Below are positions 45,184 through 59,160 of a stretch of 64,000 bases of DNA, in pieces. How positions within the stretch are numbered: the first letter of the stretch is position 1; each line of letters opens with the position of its first letter. The notes below the pieces were generated by a model. The model was not told the origin of the DNA. It ran no database searches and was given only the letters and a program-made list of their open reading frames with translations. Both the position numbers and the translations under genes were made by a program. The stretch is from Polytrichum commune (lineage: Eukaryota; Streptophyta; Polytrichopsida; Polytrichales; Polytrichaceae). Location: NCBI GenBank assembly GCA_950295325.1, contig OX485803.1, positions 48,189,554-48,253,553 on the forward strand, read 5' to 3'.

Positions 45184-45768
45184 CTACCGAATCTCGCGTG
45201 CTTCTGAATCTCGATCGTCGCAATACGTGAAGTGCGCCTCGAAGCGGTGTGTGCCACGAGAAAAGTCGGGAGAATTGTAGACAGTCGACCGGATCGCGTA
45301 GCCTCCTGCACCCACGAAATCGCCGGTGCCACCCACGATTGAGGCCGTTTGATTGACGTCGAAGATGTTGACGCCGCCTTCCACCAGGAACGTGCCCTTG
45401 TATTTGTCGGTCTGGACGTGGTTGTCAAGCGAGAAGAACAACACATAACTCCCATTGATGATCTGGCTCGTCGAACTCCCTGTCCCATACTGCCTCCCAA
45501 CGACATTCGAAGTCGTCGCGTTCACTCCGTCTGTGAGGTTTTGGCTGATGACCGCCAAGTAGCCGAGCGTGCTGTTGGCAATGACTCGCACCGTTTGGTT
45601 CTCGGCCGGACTCCGAATCTCCTGCGCGTAAACCGTCAAACTTCGAGGCCTCGCTTTGATCGCAAAACCACCACAACCACCGCCATCTGCACACGCGATT
45701 TGCGCAACATGGAAACCCAACAGCAGTAGAATGGCGACAAGCAAGCCCCTCTCGGAAAATGCCATCAT
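45184..45768 (-). CDS. dirigent-like secreted protein
   Basis: An intronless gene of 194 codons, close to the 180-190 usual for dirigent proteins. These apoplastic beta-barrel proteins steer phenoxy-radical coupling in lignan and related phenolic synthesis. MMAFSERGLLVAILLLLGF with A-C-A-D at residues 26-29 is a classic signal peptide. The dirigent core follows: L-T-D-G-V-N and VVGRQYGTG in the middle third, and SIVGGTGDFVGAGGYA near residue 150. One Cys lies just after the signal peptide and one near the C-terminus, which could pair. Several N-x-S/T sites suit a secreted glycoprotein. I chose the Met pair at 45768/45765 because it directly precedes the signal peptide; the frame is open further upstream, to an ATG at 45957. 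The substrate cannot be read from the sequence. Confidence 0.85.
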   Translation of the reverse strand: MMAFSERGLLVAILLLLGFHVAQIACADGGGCGGFAIKARPRSLTVYAQEIRSPAENQTVRVIANSTLGYLAVISQNLTDGVNATTSNVVGRQYGTGSSTSQIINGSYVLFFSLDNHVQTDKYKGTFLVEGGVNIFDVNQTASIVGGTGDFVGAGGYAIRSTVYNSPDFSRGTHRFEAHFTYCDDRDSEAREIR

Positions 45769-45884
45769 CTTCGAGCGCCTCTCAAAACCTCTCAAAATTG
45801 TTGCTGGACGTGAAGTTAGTTTCACATTGGCGAGGAGAAACTTTGCACTTATGTGTAGAAGCAGTGAGCCTCTCTGACATCGCT

Positions 45885-45900
45885 CAGAGCATATAATAAA
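45885..45900 (-). promoter_or_regulatory. candidate TATA box of the dirigent gene
   Basis: TTTATTATATGC on the minus strand lies about 120 bases before the start codon, with a CATGCA (RY-like) motif just upstream. Confidence 0.4.
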
Positions 45901-45957
45901 TGCATGATTTGTTCCATTATAGTATTCCAGCACTAGCATGTGAGACTTCCTGCACAA

Positions 45958-47931
45958 AGAGCATCAACTTACAATTTGCAGATTGAGCGGTGTCGTACAC
46001 TGGGTTTTGCTATTGTTTTACTTTTGTGAAGTAGTTTGGTTTCTATATTTAGGCATTCGGCGTCACATTTTTGGACTTCAGTCGTGAGCATTGGGTTTAT
46101 GTTTGCTACAAAAACTAGTCCACTTGGATTTTCAGTGCATGAATCACGTGGGTGCATGCATAGAAGGGGAATTGATTATGGCTAAAGGTTACAAAATATA
46201 CATAAGAGTTAGGGTGCTCTTTTTCCTAGGAATGGAGATATATTATGTCCTATGGACTATTGGAACTTTGATGTAATATTATAACAATGACATGCATGCA
46301 TATTTAAGACATCAGAAACAATTAGGATGAACTATTGAAGTATAACTGCACACAAATATTGGAGGCCCTGTTTTTTCCTGCAAGTATTTTGTCAGCACAT
46401 AAGTTATGGTGTTACATTGTTACTTTCATTTTTGTGTGGAATATATATATTTCTTGCTATTTCTTAGCTATGACTTTGTATGTATATCCCTTTTTCTGTC
46501 CACCTAAAAACCAAATACAAGAATGTTAATTTGAAGGTGACGCACACACATGACGTATGCTTGTAAGAAAAGCACATCCCCCAGAGGTTGATTGAGGATT
46601 TTGTTTCCCAACACCTACCATGAGGAGTGTACTGAAAGCCTACCCCCTTGTAAGTTTCTTGATAATTCATCATGAGTAGACTTATTCAAGACTTTTGACC
46701 CTAAATTTGGGGTGTTAATTTGGCCATAAATAGCATTTCTTGGGTTTTACATAGCAATCCACGATTTCACCCTCCCCCATGCTAGAATGCTACGAAACAT
46801 CACCCGTTGACCAGACTTACTTACAATCTATCACGGGTGTAGATTGAGTGTGTCAGATTAGTACTCTAGTGAATAGGCTAGCCACAATGTACGTTAGTGA
46901 CCATTAAATTGTACGTGGTCATACCCGTGGAACTTTGAAGGGTACAGTGTTTTGTCAAATTAGTGTGGGTAGGAAATTCATGTGGGTTGGAATTTAGTGT
47001 GGTCCACATTAATTTTATAGTACTTGCATTGGTTAACAATAGTATTATTACAGTACTTGCGTAGCCTTGAATTTTCGTCCAAATATACGGACGAAAAAGT
47101 CCACACTAATTTTTCAAACTAAAAATTAGGGTGGGGCACTTCAAACTATAATTTAAACAAAATAGTTTTGGGAATTGGGAATTGGTGTGGTTGACATTAA
47201 TCAAACGAAACCATGTACTTGTGATGTGCGAACCAAAGCTCTTCTTTCTGAGTCACAACAATTGATGAATTCTCATGATATTTTCCGACGTTTTAGAAAG
47301 ATGTGAAAATGTTTTGAAGGAATCATGACACACGTTGTTTCAAATTGTTTACACTAACTAGTATATTTAGTGCCACATGCTCTTTAAATTTACACAATGC
47401 TATATCACTTTACTATTCATGTAGTTATTTACTAGGTAAAGATGCTAATGCTCCATAATGTCCAACCAACCAATTTGACCTTTGTTAACAAACTTTGTTA
47501 ACAAAGAATGAGATATACAATAAAGAGTTATAGCATTGCGTAATTTCAAATAGTGAGTGACACTAAATACAATATTTGGTGTAGTTCTCCAAACAAAAGG
47601 ATCGTAGGGTAAGCTAGCGGGGCTACATGTTAACTGGTAGCAGGATTCTATGATTGTAATATTCTACAAAATGCTCATAATTTACCCAAGGTCATAGGGC
47701 TATGCTAATACCGGCACTTTTTAAGCGATGCCTACAGTCAGGATTACAATGAGGCCTAATTTAGAGCATGGCCACCGGTGGCACCCCGAACTGCAAATTA
47801 AATGCCCCCGAGTTAAAATTGGAGTTTTAAATTGGAGCTGCATTTCAACCTAAGGGGTTTAAGTTAGGATAGTGCAGCTCTTGCGGCTTAGTTGGATCTT
47901 CTCACTAGTGTCTCTATTCACATTCACCTCA
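45958..47931. other. intergenic, one decayed MITE
   Basis: No coding region seen. About 47400-47566 is a diverged copy of the TCCCAATTAGTG family, with GTTATAGCATTGCGTAATTT near its right end. Confidence 0.45.
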
Positions 47932-48788: not shown

Positions 48789-49284
48789 TAGGCACCCCTA
48801 AATTTGAAACATGGCAGCTTTGAAGTGAACCTCAATTCTATCTTAGAATTTGAATTTCTTTTGTTGTGCCCCCACAATTGGATCAACATGTTAGACGAGG
48901 AAGAAGGTGGATTTAGGAGGGCTGAAAACTACTCCCAAAATGAAGAGATCCAAGTTTGTCGAAGTTGGATGCACATTTACCAAGATCCGATTGTGGGAGC
49001 ACAACAAAAAAAATTCAAATTCTAGGATAGAATTGAGGTTCACTTCAAAGCTGCCATGTTTCAAAATGGACTTACCTATTCCACAGGGTTGAATAGGCAT
49101 CCCAAAATTTTGAAACATGACAGCTTTGAAGTGAACCTCAATTCGATACTAGAATTTGAATTTCTTTTGTTGTGTCCCCACAATTGGATCTTGGTAAATG
49201 TACATCCAACTTAAACAAACTTGGATCTCTTCATTGTGGCAGGTAGTTTTCAGCCCTCCTAAATCCACCTTCTTCCTCGTCTGA
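48789..49284. repeat. compound palindrome X-Y-X'-X-Y'
   Basis: Segment X (TGAAACATGGCAGCTTTGAAG ... CACAATTGGATC, about 80 bp) occurs at 48806 and 49113 forward and at 48984-49066 inverted. Segment Y (GACGAGGAAGAAGGTGG ...) occurs forward at 48895-48985 and inverted at 49191-49284. Bases 48893-49066 and 49113-49284 thus form a hairpin with arms of about 172 bp and a loop of about 46 bases. Confidence 0.82.
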
Positions 49285-50123: not shown

Positions 50124-50412
50124 CATGTTATTAATGAAAATTTCAGCATGTTGTTTGAATTGCAATCTTCTTTCTAATTTTCTTTGGCAGTATAAGTAAA
50201 ATATGGTATTTTAAAATGATTCCCCCCCAAAAAAAATTATTGACAGGGTGTATTAAATTACAAGCATTTACCTTTATTTTGAGAAATACCATACCTTATA
50301 ATCTTTTTTGCAAGGTAAATAGCCCCCCGATTAATAAGTCTTGAGCGCACGTGTATGCATTAATATAAGAGGGAGTGACCTCCCTGAGAAAAAGACACGT
50401 CGGCCGGTGAAA

Positions 50413-50840
50413 GGGAATTTTTATTACAAGGCAAAAAAAAAAACACAAAGCTTTAGCAAACCTCCGTTCCATTGTCCTCCTTGAGGCCTCTAAGAGGCAC
50501 ATACATGGGGACAATAATGGAAGAGGCATTGTTGTTGCCGCTATTTTCCCCGGCAGAGCCTTCATTATTACAAGGCAAAAAAAACACAAAGATTTAGCAA
50601 ACCTCCGTTCCATTGTCCTCCTTGAGGCCTCTAAGAGGCGCATACATGGGGACAATAATGAAAGAGGCATTGTTGTTGCCGCTATTTTCCCCGGCAGAGC
50701 CTTCATTATTACAAGGCAAAAAAAACACAAAGATTTAGCAAACCTCCGTTCCATTGTCCTCCTTGAGGCCTCTAAGAGGCGCATACATGGGGACAATAAT
50801 GAAAGAGGCATTGTTGTTGCCGCTATTTTCCCCGGCAGAG
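50413..50840 (-). repeat. 141-bp tandem repeat, 3 units
   Basis: CGGCAGAGCC recurs at 50551, 50692 and 50833, exactly 141 bases apart, and the units are nearly identical. Each unit copies the last codons, stop and early 3' region of the HUH-like gene at 50735-51890. On the minus strand the end of that gene reads GENSGNNNASFIIVP ... GTEVC and a stop. Confidence 0.9.
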
Positions 50841-51890
50841 CCTTCACCAGAAGCCCCTTCGGCACTCCCCCCCAAGGCTCCAACACTGCTACCTTCCCCG
50901 GTAGCTACCCAACCGACATATATGCCAGGTATGCCACCTAACCCAAGCTCAACGGCAGAGCCAAAACCCGCCCCAGCTAGAGCCTAGACAACTGCATGCC
51001 CACCCAACCGCCTACTGGCCGCAAAGGTGCCGGTAGTTGCTAACATCTCTAACATCTACCTCCATAGCCAATTCATCATCGTCATGGAGCACCATGTCAT
51101 GGTCCCGCTCTTCCATCCTATGGTCAAGCGCAACTTGTTGCGCATTAAAATAACGCATGTTCAACATTCTCATGATAGTGTCAAAGAAGACATTAGAATT
51201 GTCCTCCATCTTGATGTCATGTGGACACATCATAATTTTCCAAATTGAAGACCCCTCCTCACATCCATGCCCACAGATCACAACGGAATAACCCAAGTAG
51301 GATTTGGAGAGAATTGCCCGCTCTTACACATGTGAAACATGGTCCCCATAAGACTAACGCGCAAATGTTTCTTCATGTGGAATCATGCCCATTGATGAGC
51401 CCGCTACAAAATGTTGTTGTGAGACAAACTCACATGAGTTTTCAGTCCTACCTTGCCAAATTTTGCGTATTCCATCTTTCCCACATTCATATCATCCGTG
51501 GACATGTTACGATAAACAAATTCAAATTGATCTTGCCCATTATCCTTCACGCAATACCCAACCATCCCCCAAAAGGTATGCAACCCCTCATCTCTCAACT
51601 TCTTACAAGAAACAAACTTAATCTTTTTTTTCAAAACGAACAAACTGCTCAAATTATTGTTGAGCATCATTTGGAAATGCTTATGGGTCAAAGCACCTCC
51701 TCACTCAACAATGCACAACCCGGCAAGGCAATGCTCCACAATGAACCTCCTCAAATTGACCAACAACATGGTATCAATGTCAACACCCCCAACCACAATG
51801 GTAATTGAAGCTTCAAAATACTTCGATGCCGCCCGCACATGTGTGCTAAATGCCTTTTCGCCCGAGCTACAACTTTCATTCTTTGAGGCA
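50735..51890 (-). pseudogene. HUH-endonuclease-like transposon protein, broken
   Basis: On the minus strand a roughly 380-codon frame can be followed through four stops and about two frameshifts. The N-terminal part reads K-Y-F-E-A-S-I-T-I-V-V-G-G-V-D, then a segment ending in C-L-A-G-L-C-I-V-E, a stop, and GGALTHKHFQMM. About 45 residues later comes MVGYCVKDNGQDQFEF. The HxH in THKHFQ and the YxxK in GYCVKD have the order and spacing of single-tyrosine HUH nucleases, which nick and rejoin DNA in rolling-circle replication and in some transposons. Then follow KMEYAKFGKVGLKTHVSLSH, a basic segment H-M-K-K-H-L-R-V-S-L, MFHMCKSGQFSPNPTWVIP, W-K-I-M-M, an acidic stretch rich in D/E/H, and a Gly/Ser-rich tail. 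A Replitron-like or other Rep-type element is my best guess. The start codon and element ends are not defined. Confidence 0.5.
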
Positions 51891-52265
51891 TTCTAAAACA
51901 CCAAACAATAAACCCAATAACTCAAATAACTATTCTATATTGTGTCACATAGATCAATTTACTTTTTCACAGACAATACTTACTACCAAAGAAACACTTT
52001 GTTTTCCCTACTTACTCATACCCCAAGCGACAAACACCCATAATTCTCTAGCACGATAAAATAATCAAACAATTGCACCCACAATAGACGTAGATTTTAC
52101 GAGCCTGGCACCTCACACACGCAATTATTTAGTTTTGCGTAAACACAAGATTGACGTCATACAATTAGAGACAACGTCTTCACCCTGCATCCCTTGCTTC
52201 GATAACCATCATCATGCCACCTTCCAATTTCGAAAACCTCCACCTCCAACCACATGGGTCATCCT

Positions 52266-52924
52266 CTATGTTCGGGGAAAACCGACGGCTAGTTCATTAT
52301 CAGCTGATGGATTTCCCCTCATGGCCGGTCCAAACTTCCAACCATCGGATGGCAATCCGACTGTAATTTCAATCCTTCCGGCAATTAGCGGATGGACCAG
52401 AAAATGTCCCGGAAATGTAGCCGGTTCTTCTTGTGAGTTACTGGATTTCAGCTGAAAGCATCCAGAGCGCTATTTGTCTGGGGCATCTAATGATGCACTT
52501 GAGGAAGTACCCTAAACCTTAAACTTTTTGAATTATGCAACCTTTCCATGACCAAATCCAATTGCTTCTATGAAGAATTGGGGGACCCTTGGCCTTCAAG
52601 CGGTGAAGGCATTGCTAGGTTCAATTCCTGCCAAGGATATTAACTCTTCAAATTTAAAGTTTTGAACATGCCTTTCTTTTCACTTATTCAAGATTTTGTA
52701 CTAAGAAATGATTTCTAATAACTTTTCATACACTTTTTAAACAATTAGTGCCGATATGAATTCCATTTAATCGTATATTGGCCAATGGAAATATGAAATA
52801 TAGGCAATTGGCCGATTGATTTTACAAAAGACCGGCTCTTGCCGATGTAAATTGGAAAAAATCCTACCCTTCGCAGCAACTACCGGCAATTAGCCACTAA
52901 GGCTTCAAAAACTTCCCGAACTCT
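52266..52924. mobile_element. 659-bp non-autonomous Mutator-like element
   Basis: A perfect 9-bp duplication, GGTCATCCT at 52257-52265 and 52925-52933, flanks the ends CTATGTTCGGGGAAAACCG and CAAAAACTTCCCGAACTCT. End types match 33278-34281 and the short GATCGGGGAGA MITEs. CCGG motifs are frequent inside and no transposase frame is present. Confidence 0.75.
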
Positions 52925-52933
52925 GGTCATCCT

Positions 52934-54108: not shown

Positions 54109-57100
54109 CTACCAACAACTTTTGTTTTCTGAGAAACCATCAGAATCAAATGTAGAAAAAACTTTTGCAGATTGGGCAATTTTTTCTGGCACATTTGTGA
54201 TGATAAAGAATAGCTCCTCGTGTCTACATATCTTACGTATAAGATCACAACAGTTGCATAAAAATGACTCCAGGTCCATCCTCATCCACTCTTCCCAACT
54301 CTTATTGGGATTAAAATATTCATTCAAGCTTTGAAGGGTTACCAAGTTTGCTTCATGGATGTTTTGCTGTGCTACCTTGTAATCTTCACTGAATGCCTGA
54401 AATGTAGAAAACCAACAACCAAAAATGTAAATTCCAATTTCATCAAAATATACAATTCAAGCGGATGTTGGTGTAAATCTACACTGGCAATGATGTGGTA
54501 GGAGCATCTTTCTTAAATCCAAGACATTTATTGTCCTCCATTATGCACCTCTTGGCTAATTCTTGAGACATTACACGCTTCGTGTGAGTAACACATACAG
54601 ACAATATTTTTGACCATTTTAATTTCCAGAGCTCAGGAATCCCTTCACACTTTCTTGTTCAGACTTGACCACAGGAGCTGAGAGGTGAGCCGTTTGAATC
54701 GCTGATCTCTTTGTGAATTATGCATGTTGACTTCTCAATATGAAGATAACCAAACCGGCAACCTGCAAGTACAAAGCATTTCATGTTAATACATACTTTA
54801 CAGTAATAAAAAATTCCTTCGGTAAGCATGGGAAGTAGACCCAAAATTCTGCCCAGAGCTTTGGCATGCAACTACTGTAAAAAGAACACAAACCTCTACC
54901 AAGTGAAAGATCGAGAAAGCTAGATTGCCCACCTGATTACCAATAATCACCACAAGAACACACGCCATCCTTGAAGTGATGAAAACGATTTGCATCCCTT
55001 GCCACAATCTCCCGACGAGTCATCTTAGAGATAAACTTGGTTGCTGTGTGGCAATCAGAACACACCCGAAGGTTTTTGTACACTCGAATTGGTTTTGGAT
55101 AGGGTGTGTGCAATAGGCCATAAGAAATAGCCAGTCTCTCACTATGAGAACAGAGAACTAGTTTTTTGTCCTCCTCGTCAATATTGTGCAAAACGAGCCG
55201 GATGTCAGGAATATAGCCTTCGACTTGCAAACTTTCAGTCAATCTCTTTAACTCAGCATATATGTCCTTTGCTTCTGGGTGAGATGTATCCCCTGAAACA
55301 AACTCGTGGATCTTGTTATCAACTTCAATCCAACTACGCCCTGGCTCCTTGTGTATAGCTCTCTCCTGCATCACAGAGCGCACCAGTGACACCTCCTTCC
55401 ACTTGCCAGCTGCAGCATAGATGTTAGAGAGGAGGACATACGGAGAAGCATCCTTCGGTTCCAACTTGATACACTCTTCAGCAGCAAGTTCACCCAACTC
55501 CACATTACCATGAGTTCTACAAGCACCAAGCAAGGATCCCCAAGTGGCTCCATTTGGTTCAAGTGGCATGTTCACAATAAGGAGTTTTGCTTCCTCCAAC
55601 TGCCCTGCCCTCCCAAGAAGATCCACCATGCAGTTATAATGCGCCAAAGTAGGTTTGATGCCAAAATCTTGCGTCATGGCCAGAAACAATTGGCGGCCTT
55701 CATCAAGAAGGCCTGCATAACTACAGGCCGACAACACTGCCACAAATGAGTACCCATCGGGGTTCACACCCTTTGTGTTCATCTCCCTGAAGACTTCCAG
55801 GGCTTCACTCCCACACCCATGTTGTGCTAGTCCACCAATCAAAATGGTCCATGTGATGACATCCCGTTCCTCCATTCTGTTAAAAACTAGTCTCGCATCA
55901 TCTATACTGCCAACCTTTATGTACACATCAACAAGTGCATTGAACACATGCAAATCTGCCTGAAGTCCTGCTTCCAGAACATGGCGGTGAACCTCCTTCA
56001 CCCACTCCAGAGCCCCTGCACTCGCACATGCATTCAGTATGCTCACATAAGTTATTGCATCTGGTTTAAAGCTTTCCTGCCTCATTTGGAGAAAGAGTTC
56101 ATATGCTTCGCGCGTACATCCATCTAGTGCAAGCCCACCAATCATGATGTTCCATGTGATTACATCACGTTCCTTCATACCATCAAAAATTAGTCTAGCA
56201 TCATCAATACTGCCACTCTTTGCATACATGTGAACAAGAGCATTGCCCACGCGTAAATCTGACTCGAGTCCTGCTTCCACTATATGACTATGGACCTCCT
56301 TCACCCACTCCAAAGCCCCTTCACTTGCACATGGATTCAATATGCTCACATAAGTTGTGGCATCTGGTACACAACCCTCTCTTTGCAATTGGAGGAAGAG
56401 ATCATAGGCTTCACACCCACATCCATCTTGTGCAAGTCCACCAATCATAATATTCCATGTGATAACATCGCGTTCCTTCATACTGTCAAAAACTAGTCTA
56501 GCATCTTTAAGACTACCACTCTTTACATACATGTGCACAAGAGCATTTCCCACACGTAAATCTGATCCACATCCTGCTTTCATTGCATGGCTGTGAATCT
56601 CCTTCACCCACTCCAGAGCCCCTGTACTTGAACGTGGATTCAATATGTTCACATAAGTAGCTGAGTCTGGTACACAACCCTCTCTTTGCATTCGAAGAAA
56701 AAGTTTGTATGCTTCATGCCCACACCCAGCTTGTGCAAGTCCACCAATTATTATATTCCATGTGATAACATTGCGATCCTTCATACTGTCAAACACTAGT
56801 TTGGCATCATTAATACTGCCACTCTTTGCAAACATGTGAACAAGAGCATTGCCCACACGTAAATCTGACTCAAGTCCTGCTTCCGCAACAAGGATGTGAA
56901 TATCCTTCACCCACTCCAATGCCCCTGCACTTGCACATGGATTCAATATGCTCACATAAGTAGTTGCATCTGGTTTGAAGCCTTCCTGATTCATTTGGAG
57001 AAAGAGTTCATATGCATCACGCCCACATCCATCTTGTGCGAGTCCACCAATCATGATGTTCCAAGTGATAACATTGCGTTCCTTCATTCTGTCAAAAACT

Positions 57101-59160
57101 CGTCTGGCATCATCAATGCTGCCACTCTTTGCATACATGTGAACAAGAGCATTGGCCACACGCAAATCTGATTCAAGTCCTGCTTCCAAGATATGGCTGT
57201 GAACCTTCTTCACCCACTCAATAGCCCCTTCCCTTGCACATGCATTCAGGATACTTATACAAGTAATCGCATCTGGTTTGAAGCCTTCCCGTTTCATTTG
57301 GAGAAAGAGGTCATATGCTTCAACACCACGACCACTTTCTGCATATGCGCCAATCATAACATTCCAAGAAATGACATCAATACTGGTCAATCTATCAAAC
57401 ACTTGCCTTGCCTCCTTGATACACCCACACTTTGCATACATCTTAAGAAGGGCAGTCCCTACACACACATCTGATTCAAGGCCACCATGAGTGATGTGTG
57501 AATGAACTTCTTTGCCCCATTTTAAACCTGATGGGTTGGCACATGCCTTCAGAATGCTCAAGTAAGTAATCTCATTTGGCTTCACACCTTCTTGGATCAT
57601 TTTATTAAAAACTTCCATTGCATCTTTAGTATGATTCTGCCGAGCATAACCTCCAATCATGATGTTCCAACTAGAAACATCCTTCTTCGCAAGTTCAACA
57701 AATGCTTGGTTTGCATCCTGCAATCTCCCACAATTGATATAGGTACTGAGTAGGTTATTCGCCACATATATATTTTGCTCCATTCCACTCTTGATAATGC
57801 AATCATGAACATGCTTGGCTGCTGTTGGGTCTTTTTGCTTTGAGCACTGCTTCAGAACTTTAATATACATGTACGAGTCTATAGTAATGCCTTGTTGTAG
57901 TTGATTCTTCAGAATAGCAATTGCTTCACTCAAGGTACTTGTGATTTGCACATGCATATTACCATTGCCACCTTGTACAATTTGCCTAAACTCTCTTGCA
58001 CTACTAAGCTCAATGTTTCTTCTTCCATTGTCTCCTTTCAACAATCTGCCCACCACAAAAATCATCATGAGAGCAAGAAAACGCTACTTCATCAAGTGAA
58101 GGGTGTAAGATCAGGAACGCTCTACACTCAAGCGTTTCAATACGAACACACTTGAATGCATCCATATGCAAACTTTGTATTTCTCAATATATTTTAGAAA
58201 GCCCCTCACTTTCAAGTGCATCCAAATCTTAAAAGATGGCTCAGAATTCCAAGGACAAGTACATGGTGCTCAAACCAAATCCTTCACAGATCACAAATTT
58301 TAGATTGCACCTGAAATTACAAATTTCAAAGTGCATGTTTGGCATCCAGATTTCATACATGAGCTTCACCAACGAATCATGTTACACCTACTTCTTGTCA
58401 GTTATGAAGAGCTACCATTACCTTTGGGGATGTGCAGTGTCTTGAGAACCTGTGGTGCAATAACAAGCACGAGATTGCAATTTGCCTTGCATCACCAATT
58501 TGAGCCTTGCATTCAACCATGCTGGTGTTGACCAAATATCTACTAGAAGTGTTTGTCTTGGCAACTTTTCTTTAAAGCCAAGTGTCCCGAGATTCCTCTA
58601 TAGGCACCACAACCCACAATCAGAAATGGAAAATCCAACTTGCATTTTATTTGCAACCAACAGAATGAAGAATATGTTGTTAAACATCTCAATAATCGGA
58701 TCAACTTTCACTCCACTCTAGTACAAGCAAATAACAACTGTATTCATTGTTTCCCTAATGACCATAACTTTTGTAAAAAGCAAGGAATGTCCCAACTCAA
58801 TTGTGAACCCAACATCAACTTTCTACCCTTATTGACTGGCAGCCACAGTAGTACCTTGTCAATCCTGTTGCCCCACCACTGGATAAGCTCTGCATAATAT
58901 TTCCCCCAAAGTTGTTCAATCGTCTGTGTTTTGCCTGAATCAAGCGCAAAGTACTTCATCCATGTCAGTTATGTTCTCTTTGGGAAAGGCAACTTGCATC
59001 GACCTCTTTCCATGACGATGGGCATCTCATACAAACCTGAGATATAAGGACTCGGAGGTGACCTTCTCCAAATTGATGAACATGGAAAGCACCTAATTTG
59101 TCCACTGCTTCTTCCTCCATGGTGAACGAGAGAGTAGATAAAGAAGGGTAGATAGGCCAT
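54109..59160 (-). CDS. unrecognised five-exon gene hosting the PPR gene
   Basis: Five minus-strand exons fit together with GT-AG borders and matching phases: 59037-59160 (start ATG, 124 nt), 58855-58934 (80 nt), 58450-58597 (148 nt), 54485-54762 (278 nt) and 54109-54396 (288 nt, ends TAG). The total is 306 codons. Exon 1 encodes a basic, hydrophobic start (MAYLPFFIYSLVHHGG) that could be an organelle transit peptide. Exons 2-3 read Q-L-W-G-K-Y-Y-A-E-L-I-Q-W-W-G and LLVDIWSTPAWLNARLKLV, ending Cys-rich (C-Y-C-T-T-G-C). Exons 4-5 give a helical tail with W-E-E-W-M-R-M-D-L-E-S-F-L-C-N-C-C. A single in-frame TGA (54659-54661) interrupts exon 4. Intron 3 (54763-58449) contains the whole PPR gene. 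I know no family for it. It could be a recent pseudogene, or two unrelated exon sets. Confidence 0.5.
54937..58068 (-). CDS. PLS-class PPR protein with DYW deaminase domain
   Basis: An intronless frame of 1043 residues. PPR-DYW proteins bind single sites in organelle transcripts and convert C to U. The repeat tract runs from about residue 60 to 860 in PLS order. Five almost identical 101-residue units each start E-W-V-K-x-(V/I)-H. The E region and PG box (PGRSWIEVDNKIHEF) begin at residue 909. In the DYW domain the zinc site and catalytic glutamate are complete: HSER with His975 and Glu977, and CSDC with Cys1003 and Cys1006. The second metal site is HH 1030-1031 with C-S-C 1037-1039, and the protein ends exactly in GDYW. 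An in-frame TAG shortly upstream supports the start at 58068; the basic N-terminus suits import into mitochondria or plastids. It lies inside intron 3 of the gene 54109-59160, on the same strand. Being intronless and nested, it may be a retrocopy or an insertion. Confidence 0.93.
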   Translation of the reverse strand: MMIFVVGRLLKGDNGRRNIELSSAREFRQIVQGGNGNMHVQITSTLSEAIAILKNQLQQGITIDSYMYIKVLKQCSKQKDPTAAKHVHDCIIKSGMEQNIYVANNLLSTYINCGRLQDANQAFVELAKKDVSSWNIMIGGYARQNHTKDAMEVFNKMIQEGVKPNEITYLSILKACANPSGLKWGKEVHSHITHGGLESDVCVGTALLKMYAKCGCIKEARQVFDRLTSIDVISWNVMIGAYAESGRGVEAYDLFLQMKREGFKPDAITCISILNACAREGAIEWVKKVHSHILEAGLESDLRVANALVHMYAKSGSIDDARRVFDRMKERNVITWNIMIGGLAQDGCGRDAYELFLQMNQEGFKPDATTYVSILNPCASAGALEWVKDIHILVAEAGLESDLRVGNALVHMFAKSGSINDAKLVFDSMKDRNVITWNIIIGGLAQAGCGHEAYKLFLRMQREGCVPDSATYVNILNPRSSTGALEWVKEIHSHAMKAGCGSDLRVGNALVHMYVKSGSLKDARLVFDSMKERDVITWNIMIGGLAQDGCGCEAYDLFLQLQREGCVPDATTYVSILNPCASEGALEWVKEVHSHIVEAGLESDLRVGNALVHMYAKSGSIDDARLIFDGMKERDVITWNIMIGGLALDGCTREAYELFLQMRQESFKPDAITYVSILNACASAGALEWVKEVHRHVLEAGLQADLHVFNALVDVYIKVGSIDDARLVFNRMEERDVITWTILIGGLAQHGCGSEALEVFREMNTKGVNPDGYSFVAVLSACSYAGLLDEGRQLFLAMTQDFGIKPTLAHYNCMVDLLGRAGQLEEAKLLIVNMPLEPNGATWGSLLGACRTHGNVELGELAAEECIKLEPKDASPYVLLSNIYAAAGKWKEVSLVRSVMQERAIHKEPGRSWIEVDNKIHEFVSGDTSHPEAKDIYAELKRLTESLQVEGYIPDIRLVLHNIDEEDKKLVLCSHSERLAISYGLLHTPYPKPIRVYKNLRVCSDCHTATKFISKMTRREIVARDANRFHHFKDGVCSCGDYW

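What the first reader, a model, noticed from the sequence alone, without database searches (positions are those of the whole stretch)
50735..51890. Plant transposon relic with an HUH-nuclease signature
The minus-strand frame carries THKHFQ and, about 45 residues later, GYCVKD. This is an HxH plus YxxK arrangement as in single-tyrosine Rep/HUH enzymes. It has no Helitron helicase hallmark, and the surrounding protein (long C-terminal part with conserved-looking WVIP and acidic Gly-rich tail) matches no common plant transposase class I know. It could represent a Replitron-like or still undescribed rolling-circle element.
Basis: partly seen in the sequence, partly recalled or inferred. Interest (0 to 1): 0.85.

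Follow-up and report, generated by a model that had tools for sequence, protein, structure and literature searches.

The report
Dead Replitron transposon in a plant

Summary
On the minus strand one frame (51404-51892, interrupted by a single TGA) carries THKHFQ and, 43 residues on, GYCVKD. A later piece touches Replitron_C (PF21860) weakly, 0.0048 and below cut-off; sister copy L013, 74% identical, matches both families above cut-off. The genome holds 71 Replitron_HUH matches over cut-off of 74 listed, against 0 of 14 unnamed control genomes. The longest open frame over any of 150 scored matches is 289 aa, of an expected ~400. Codon statistics suggest old lineages that diverged under selection, then decayed. 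This copy has stops, frame changes, lacks 13 codons and has a triplicated 3' coding end. It is a new member of a known kind, an ordinary relic. Ends and target-site duplications were not resolved, and no fold was obtained.

The parts
51404..51892 (-). HUH endonuclease domain of the Replitron protein, one frame with one internal TGA (51701-51703), ending at a stop at 51404-51406; THKHFQ and GYCVKD inside
   Evidence: PF21859 37.6 bits for the 98-aa piece, 45.5 bits for 51410-51832 read through; whole-genome family search 41.9 bits, profile 2-128
51889..51891 (-). probable start codon, near where homology among copies becomes recognisable; out of frame with the HUH frame
   Evidence: alignments of the 5' region: copies share an M(P/S/A)(Q/P/S)RM-like start; inference
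51177..51382 (-). remains of the Replitron_C domain, split over two frames: FHMKKHL...NPTWVIPL (51382-51281) and SSIWKIMMCPHDIKMEDNSNVFFDT (51251-51177, in ORF 51012-51323)
   Evidence: 34-aa first piece to PF21860: E 0.0048, 17.7 bits, below cut-off 27; second frame piece no Pfam match; the homologous stretch of L013 matches PF21860 with 35.2 bits
50735..50983 (-). Gly/Ser-rich linker and C-terminal peptide IVPMYAPLRGLKEDNGTEVC-stop, end of the coding region
   Evidence: similar peptide before a stop in sister copies, e.g. VPFYVPVRELDGVTTEEAF-stop in L075; no Pfam match of the 82-aa frame at E 0.01
50436..50858 (.). three 141-bp tandem repeats that triplicate the C-terminal coding end; 98% and 91% like the reference copy
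   Evidence: the peptide is read three times; no other match found in the genome with 50400-51044
50359..50373 (-). possible 3' end motif CCCTCTTATATTAAT, like CCCTCTTATACTAAT after the C-tract of L064; tentative only
   Evidence: local score 13, reached by 83 of 500 shuffles, so not significant

Best explanation
Shown: the stretch 50735-51891 (minus) is the decayed protein-coding region of a Replitron, about 400 codons when whole (inference from its span): N-terminal HUH endonuclease domain with one candidate catalytic tyrosine, Replitron_C domain, Gly/Ser-rich linker, C-terminal peptide shared with sister copies, no helicase match in the parts read. Inferred from established knowledge of HUH enzymes (recalled, not tested): in an active relative the HxH would hold a metal ion and the tyrosine of YxxK would nick one DNA strand at an element end and stay joined to the 5' phosphate; strand displacement would give a single-stranded copy that is inserted elsewhere (copy-and-paste). 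Replitron_C is presumed to serve in oligomerisation (recalled from the abstract of Craig 2023, not seen here). This copy is dead: a stop inside the HUH domain, further stops, frame changes, 13 codons missing, and a triplicated 3' coding end.
For: PF21859 above its curated cut-off for the window sequence itself. Sister copy L013 (74% identical over the query) matches PF21859 (57.7 bits) and PF21860 (35.2 bits); L029 40.6 and 32.8 bits. Single Ala changes of L013 scored against the profile cost 5.9 bits at the second H, 6.1 at Y, 4.3 at K and 2.4 at the first H; controls H95, Y118 and K48 cost 0, -0.6 and -0.1; two other residues also cost much, H112 5.9 and E40 4.1. 71 of 74 PF21859 matches and 32 of 32 PF21860 matches in this genome are over cut-off; 0 of 14 control genomes in both. 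Window copy against L013: Ks 0.59, Ka 0.17, Ka/Ks 0.28; median Ka/Ks 0.15 over the 30 of 55 pairs with computable Ks.
Against: No solved-structure relative by sequence, and the AlphaFold2 model of the broken window protein is useless (mean pLDDT 35.1), so the fold is not shown. Ends, terminal direct repeats and target-site duplication were not established. The window's own Replitron_C match is below cut-off and one of its two pieces has none. Among copies the two H are kept no better than a middling column (67th and 52nd percentile), the Y is (96th) and the K (88th); 33 of 54 copies have lost at least one of the four residues. The first H matters least to the profile.
Confidence: 0.96

Rival explanations
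1. A still undescribed class of rolling-circle element that merely resembles Replitrons.
For: The C-terminal peptide and the G-tract/C-tract blocks lie outside the stretches matched by the two Pfam models.
Against: Both Replitron domains match in sister copies, in order and above curated cut-offs; the second H, Y and K fall on conserved columns of the family's profile.
Confidence: 0.03
2. Fragment of a Helitron (two-tyrosine RepHel, by recall) that has lost its helicase.
For: Helitron_like_N occurs in this genome (34 matches, 33 over cut-off).
Against: Window pieces (E up to 10) and four sister ORFs (E up to 1) match Replitron_HUH and not Helitron_like_N; a Replitron_C match follows.
Confidence: 0.005
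3. A host gene domesticated from a Replitron, here a pseudogene.
For: Low Ka/Ks between lineages (0.28 window-L013, median 0.15).
Against: Dozens of scattered matches with stops in many of them; the closest pair differs evenly at the three codon positions (0.20, 0.23, 0.21 for L063-L064), as neutral relics do; lineages of active transposons also show low Ka/Ks.
Confidence: 0.02

Closest known systems
Replitrons (Craig 2023, PNAS e2301424120; paper not held, known from a passage in PMC10741241, and by recall); Pfam PF21859 Replitron_HUH and PF21860 Replitron_C
   Same: HUH domain with HxH and one candidate tyrosine, followed by Replitron_C; no helicase in the parts read; many copies in one genome
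   Different: The window copy is broken. Its sister copies show a C-terminal peptide after a variable linker and G-tract/C-tract blocks near the ends; whether other Replitrons have these was not tested
Reps of CRESS-DNA viruses and their plasmids
   Same: HUH with a YCxK-type motif (recall)
   Different: No helicase match in the parts read; no relative confirmed in viral contigs and none in PDB sequences
Helitrons (RepHel)
   Same: HUH-based rolling-circle transposon (recall)
   Different: Two tyrosines and a fused helicase expected (recall); no Helitron_like_N or helicase match here

Membership tests
Replitron | Replitron_HUH domain (PF21859) over curated cut-off | tested here: met
   37.6 and 45.5 bits for the window pieces, cut-off 28.5
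Replitron | HxH and a single tyrosine with YxxK at conserved columns of the profile | tested here: met
   Present in the window; in L013, Ala changes lower the score at H49, Y103 and K106, less at H47. The profile's own letters were not visible
Replitron | C-terminal Replitron_C domain (PF21860) | tested here: inconclusive
   Window: one piece 17.7 bits, E 0.0048, below cut-off 27, the other no match; sister copies L013 and L029 above cut-off, L012 and L039 not matched
Replitron | No fused helicase | tested here: met
   No helicase match in the window pieces or in four sister ORFs; the protein is broken, so only the parts read were tested
Replitron | Short direct terminal repeats of 5-11 bp and TSD of 2-8 bp (as stated) | tested here: inconclusive
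   Shared blocks near the ends of sister copies; exact ends, direct repeats and TSD not resolved; window 3' motif not above shuffles; window 5' block not found
Replitron | Host among green algae, liverworts, mosses, lycophytes, ferns; not hornworts or seed plants (as stated) | tested here: inconclusive
   A radial-spoke gene (four exon-like matches on C1) points to motile sperm, so probably a nonseed plant (by recall, Ginkgo and cycads also have it); the tools name no species
Replitron | HUH fold | tested here: inconclusive
   AlphaFold2 without alignment gave pLDDT 35.1; no fold search was run on it
Helitron | Helitron_like_N and helicase | tested here: not met
   No such match

The most novel reading that the evidence does not exclude
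This genome preserves many Replitron lineages that parted long ago (synonymous sites saturated or nearly so between most copies and L013) under purifying selection, and that share a C-terminal peptide (VPxYxPxRGL...E.F-stop) and G-tract/C-tract blocks near their ends. They could be a distinct land-plant Replitron subfamily with a further functional module, perhaps one that recognises the ends.
Probability: 0.3. Interest if true: 0.35.

Novelty: new member of a known kind. Interest (0 to 1): 0.2.

Why it matters
It confirms that a reader of raw sequence can recognise a decayed HUH transposase, and it adds a set of Replitron relics from one 408-Mb plant genome (71 HUH matches over cut-off). The shared C-terminal peptide and terminal blocks could help to annotate Replitrons, for which no dedicated software existed according to PMC10741241 (passage seen).

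Tried and rejected
Fold of the window protein: single-sequence AlphaFold2 gave pLDDT below 50 at each of 162 residues, so I ran no fold search. PDB by sequence: one chance hit (E 0.32) for the 98-aa piece, nothing for the profile. PHROGs: one weak unnamed hit, 0.019, for L013. Relatives in viral contigs and in prokaryote genome contigs: none confirmed, although 91 and 133 stretches matched a pattern. Window 3' end by similarity to L064: 83 of 500 shuffles score as high, so not claimed. The upstream sequence 52265-52925 was considered as the element's 5' part and rejected: it is a separate repeat with many near-identical copies. I first doubted the Gly-rich tail because DNA homology with L013 ends at about 51044; extended sister loci showed that it belongs. 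The CheR hit of the N-terminal piece (E 0.016, below cut-off) was taken as chance. tRNA scan of the window: none. Paper searches: 'Replitron' 3 papers, with 'moss' 1, 'HUH endonuclease' + 'transposon' + 'moss' 3; passages seen in PMC10741241 and PMC13231165, the others in listing only; Craig 2023 not held.

Full report
What was claimed and what is there. The minus-strand frame holds THKHFQ and, 43 residues on, GYCVKD. The frame runs 51404-51892 with one TGA at 51701-51703. A probable start codon, ATG at 51891-51889, sits near where homology among copies becomes recognisable, but in another frame. Past 51404 the homology goes on in the same frame through further stops (WVIP at 51295-51284), passes to another frame (SSIWKIMM, in ORF 51012-51323), and the Gly-rich tail, 50735-50983, is again in the first frame.

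What it is. The 98-aa piece with both motifs matches Pfam PF21859 Replitron_HUH, E 3.3e-9, 37.6 bits, cut-off 28.5. Read through its one stop, the frame (51410-51832) matches profile positions 2-128 of 128 with 45.5 bits; the whole-genome family search also finds this place, 41.9 bits. The WVIP piece touches PF21860 Replitron_C, E 0.0048, 17.7 bits, below the cut-off of 27; the frame with SSIWKIMM has no match. The nearest sister, L013 (74% identical over the query), has an open frame of 289 aa that matches PF21859 (57.7 bits) and PF21860 (35.2 bits), in that order; L029 does too (40.6 and 32.8 bits); L012 and L039 match PF21859 only. WVIP lies in the part of L013 that matches Replitron_C.

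Are the motifs the catalytic ones? The profile's columns were not visible, so I scored single Ala changes of L013 against it: unchanged 59.5 bits; first H 57.1, second H 53.6, Y 53.4, K 55.2; controls H95 59.5, Y118 60.1, K48 59.6; two further residues matter as much, H112 53.6 and E40 55.4. So the second H, the Y and the K fall on conserved columns, the first H less strongly. Of 56 own-genome copies mapped to L013 (L013 and the window copy included), 54 cover all four positions: HxH in 29, YxxK in 39, both in 21. H-to-Y is the commonest departure (HY 5, YH 3). The two H are kept like a middling column (67th and 52nd percentile), the Y (96th) and K (88th) better. This is what decayed copies of a functional family would give; it is not proof of catalysis.

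How many, how old. The protein search gave 150 scored matches from 218 candidates, some of them fragments of one copy. PF21859 gave 74 matches, 71 over cut-off, from 119 candidates; PF21860 gave 32, all over cut-off, from 72; each rang in 0 of 14 control genomes, which the answers do not name. The tool calls such counts lower bounds. The longest open frame over any of the 150 matches is 289 aa, against about 400 expected from the span; in the 56 compared copies it is also 289 (where 40 regions of about 900 bases could cut a frame short). The closest pair found among the 56 is 84-85% identical in DNA. Against L013, Ka/Ks is 0.28 for the window copy (Ks 0.59, Ka 0.17); for 55 copies the median is 0.15 over the 30 pairs whose Ks could be computed, the other 25 being saturated. 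The closest pair, L063-L064, differs evenly at codon positions (0.20, 0.23, 0.21), and so do L052-L055 (0.28, 0.30, 0.25); L019-L029, L012-L023 and L026-L034 lean slightly to third positions (0.32, 0.30, 0.29); L056-L058 is even but high (0.40, 0.41, 0.45); the window against L013 is mixed (0.19, 0.15, 0.29); deep pairs such as L013-L012 differ mostly at third positions (0.23, 0.19, 0.55). The reading is that lineages parted under selection while active, and that each relic then decayed neutrally.

Anatomy beyond Pfam. Extended loci (13 regions) show that coding goes on past Replitron_C through a variable linker to a short C-terminal peptide: VPFYVPVRELDGVTTEEAF-stop in L075, VPLYVPVRGLHDISKEEAF-stop in L020, IVPMYAPLRGLKEDNGTEVC-stop in the window. 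A strict pattern finds it in 4 of 27 sequences (L075, L020, L022, window); in 50 shuffles the mean was 0.0 copies. Looser tblastn with two of these tails finds similar stretches in further copies (L065, L074, L016, L021, L017 at 0.02 or better with one tail; others weaker), along with a few hits that are plainly chance (reverse strand, or upstream in L073). In the window the end of the gene is triplicated as 141-bp tandem repeats, with no other match found in the genome. Several sister copies have a C-tract, in L064 followed by CTTATACTAAT, roughly 110 bp past the stop. Five share a block like GCATTGGGTGGGGG...GATAAATTTA...GTCCAACAT a few hundred bases upstream of the start, about 1 kb upstream in L071 (L072, L071, L022, L020, L064), and L014 weakly (E 0.065). 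These look like terminal regions, but exact ends, terminal direct repeats and target-site duplications were not resolved. The 5' block was not found near the window copy, its 3' motif is not above shuffles, and a repeat at 52265-52925 interrupts its 5' side.

Mechanism. By established knowledge of HUH enzymes (recalled), the pair of histidines would hold a divalent metal and the tyrosine would nick one strand and stay bound to the 5' phosphate, starting rolling-circle-like copy-and-paste transposition. That Replitrons insert copy-and-paste is recalled from the abstract of Craig 2023, which was not held. No step of the mechanism was tested here, and no activity is expected of this copy.

Host. 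The tools name no organism. The assembly has 408 Mb; seven contigs (C1-C7, 42-78 Mb) make up about 406 Mb of it. A radial-spoke gene (four exon-like matches on C1, a fifth weak match on C5) points to motile sperm and so probably to a nonseed plant, in line with the host range reported for Replitrons (passage in PMC10741241). A moss with seven chromosomes is my guess.

Novelty. The held library has three papers with the word Replitron; I saw passages of two and the listing of the third. The review passage describes the group, so the kind is known. I found nothing that makes this copy more than a new, dead member. Interest is low; the shared C-terminal peptide and terminal blocks are worth a line to a specialist.

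Noticed in passing
window 52265-52925: About 660-bp repeat, 96-97% identical to 39 other listed places and with 1078 first-look candidates (40 scored), directly upstream of the relic; its ends (TGTTCGGGGAA ... TTCCCGAACT) suggest a solo LTR of a young, abundant element (inference).
   Followed up: partly
window 50436-50858: Three 141-bp tandem repeats that triplicate the C-terminal end of the relic's gene.
   Followed up: yes
L070 2782-3561 (locus coordinates; 1341-2120 when turned to the sense strand): Part of a Replitron copy's 5' region seems to be present two or three times in tandem; a trace of transposition or replication, or of later slippage.
   Followed up: no
window 54937-58083, minus strand: Open frame of 1048 aa with PPR repeats, E, E+ and DYW deaminase domains: a likely plant organelle RNA-editing factor next to the relic.
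   Followed up: no
window 45184-45963, minus strand: Open frame of 259 aa with a Dirigent domain.
   Followed up: no
window 49000-49174: Inverted repeat with 68-nt arms, 94% complementary, 39 nt apart; the first arm begins at the edge of the stretch examined, so it may be longer.
   Followed up: no
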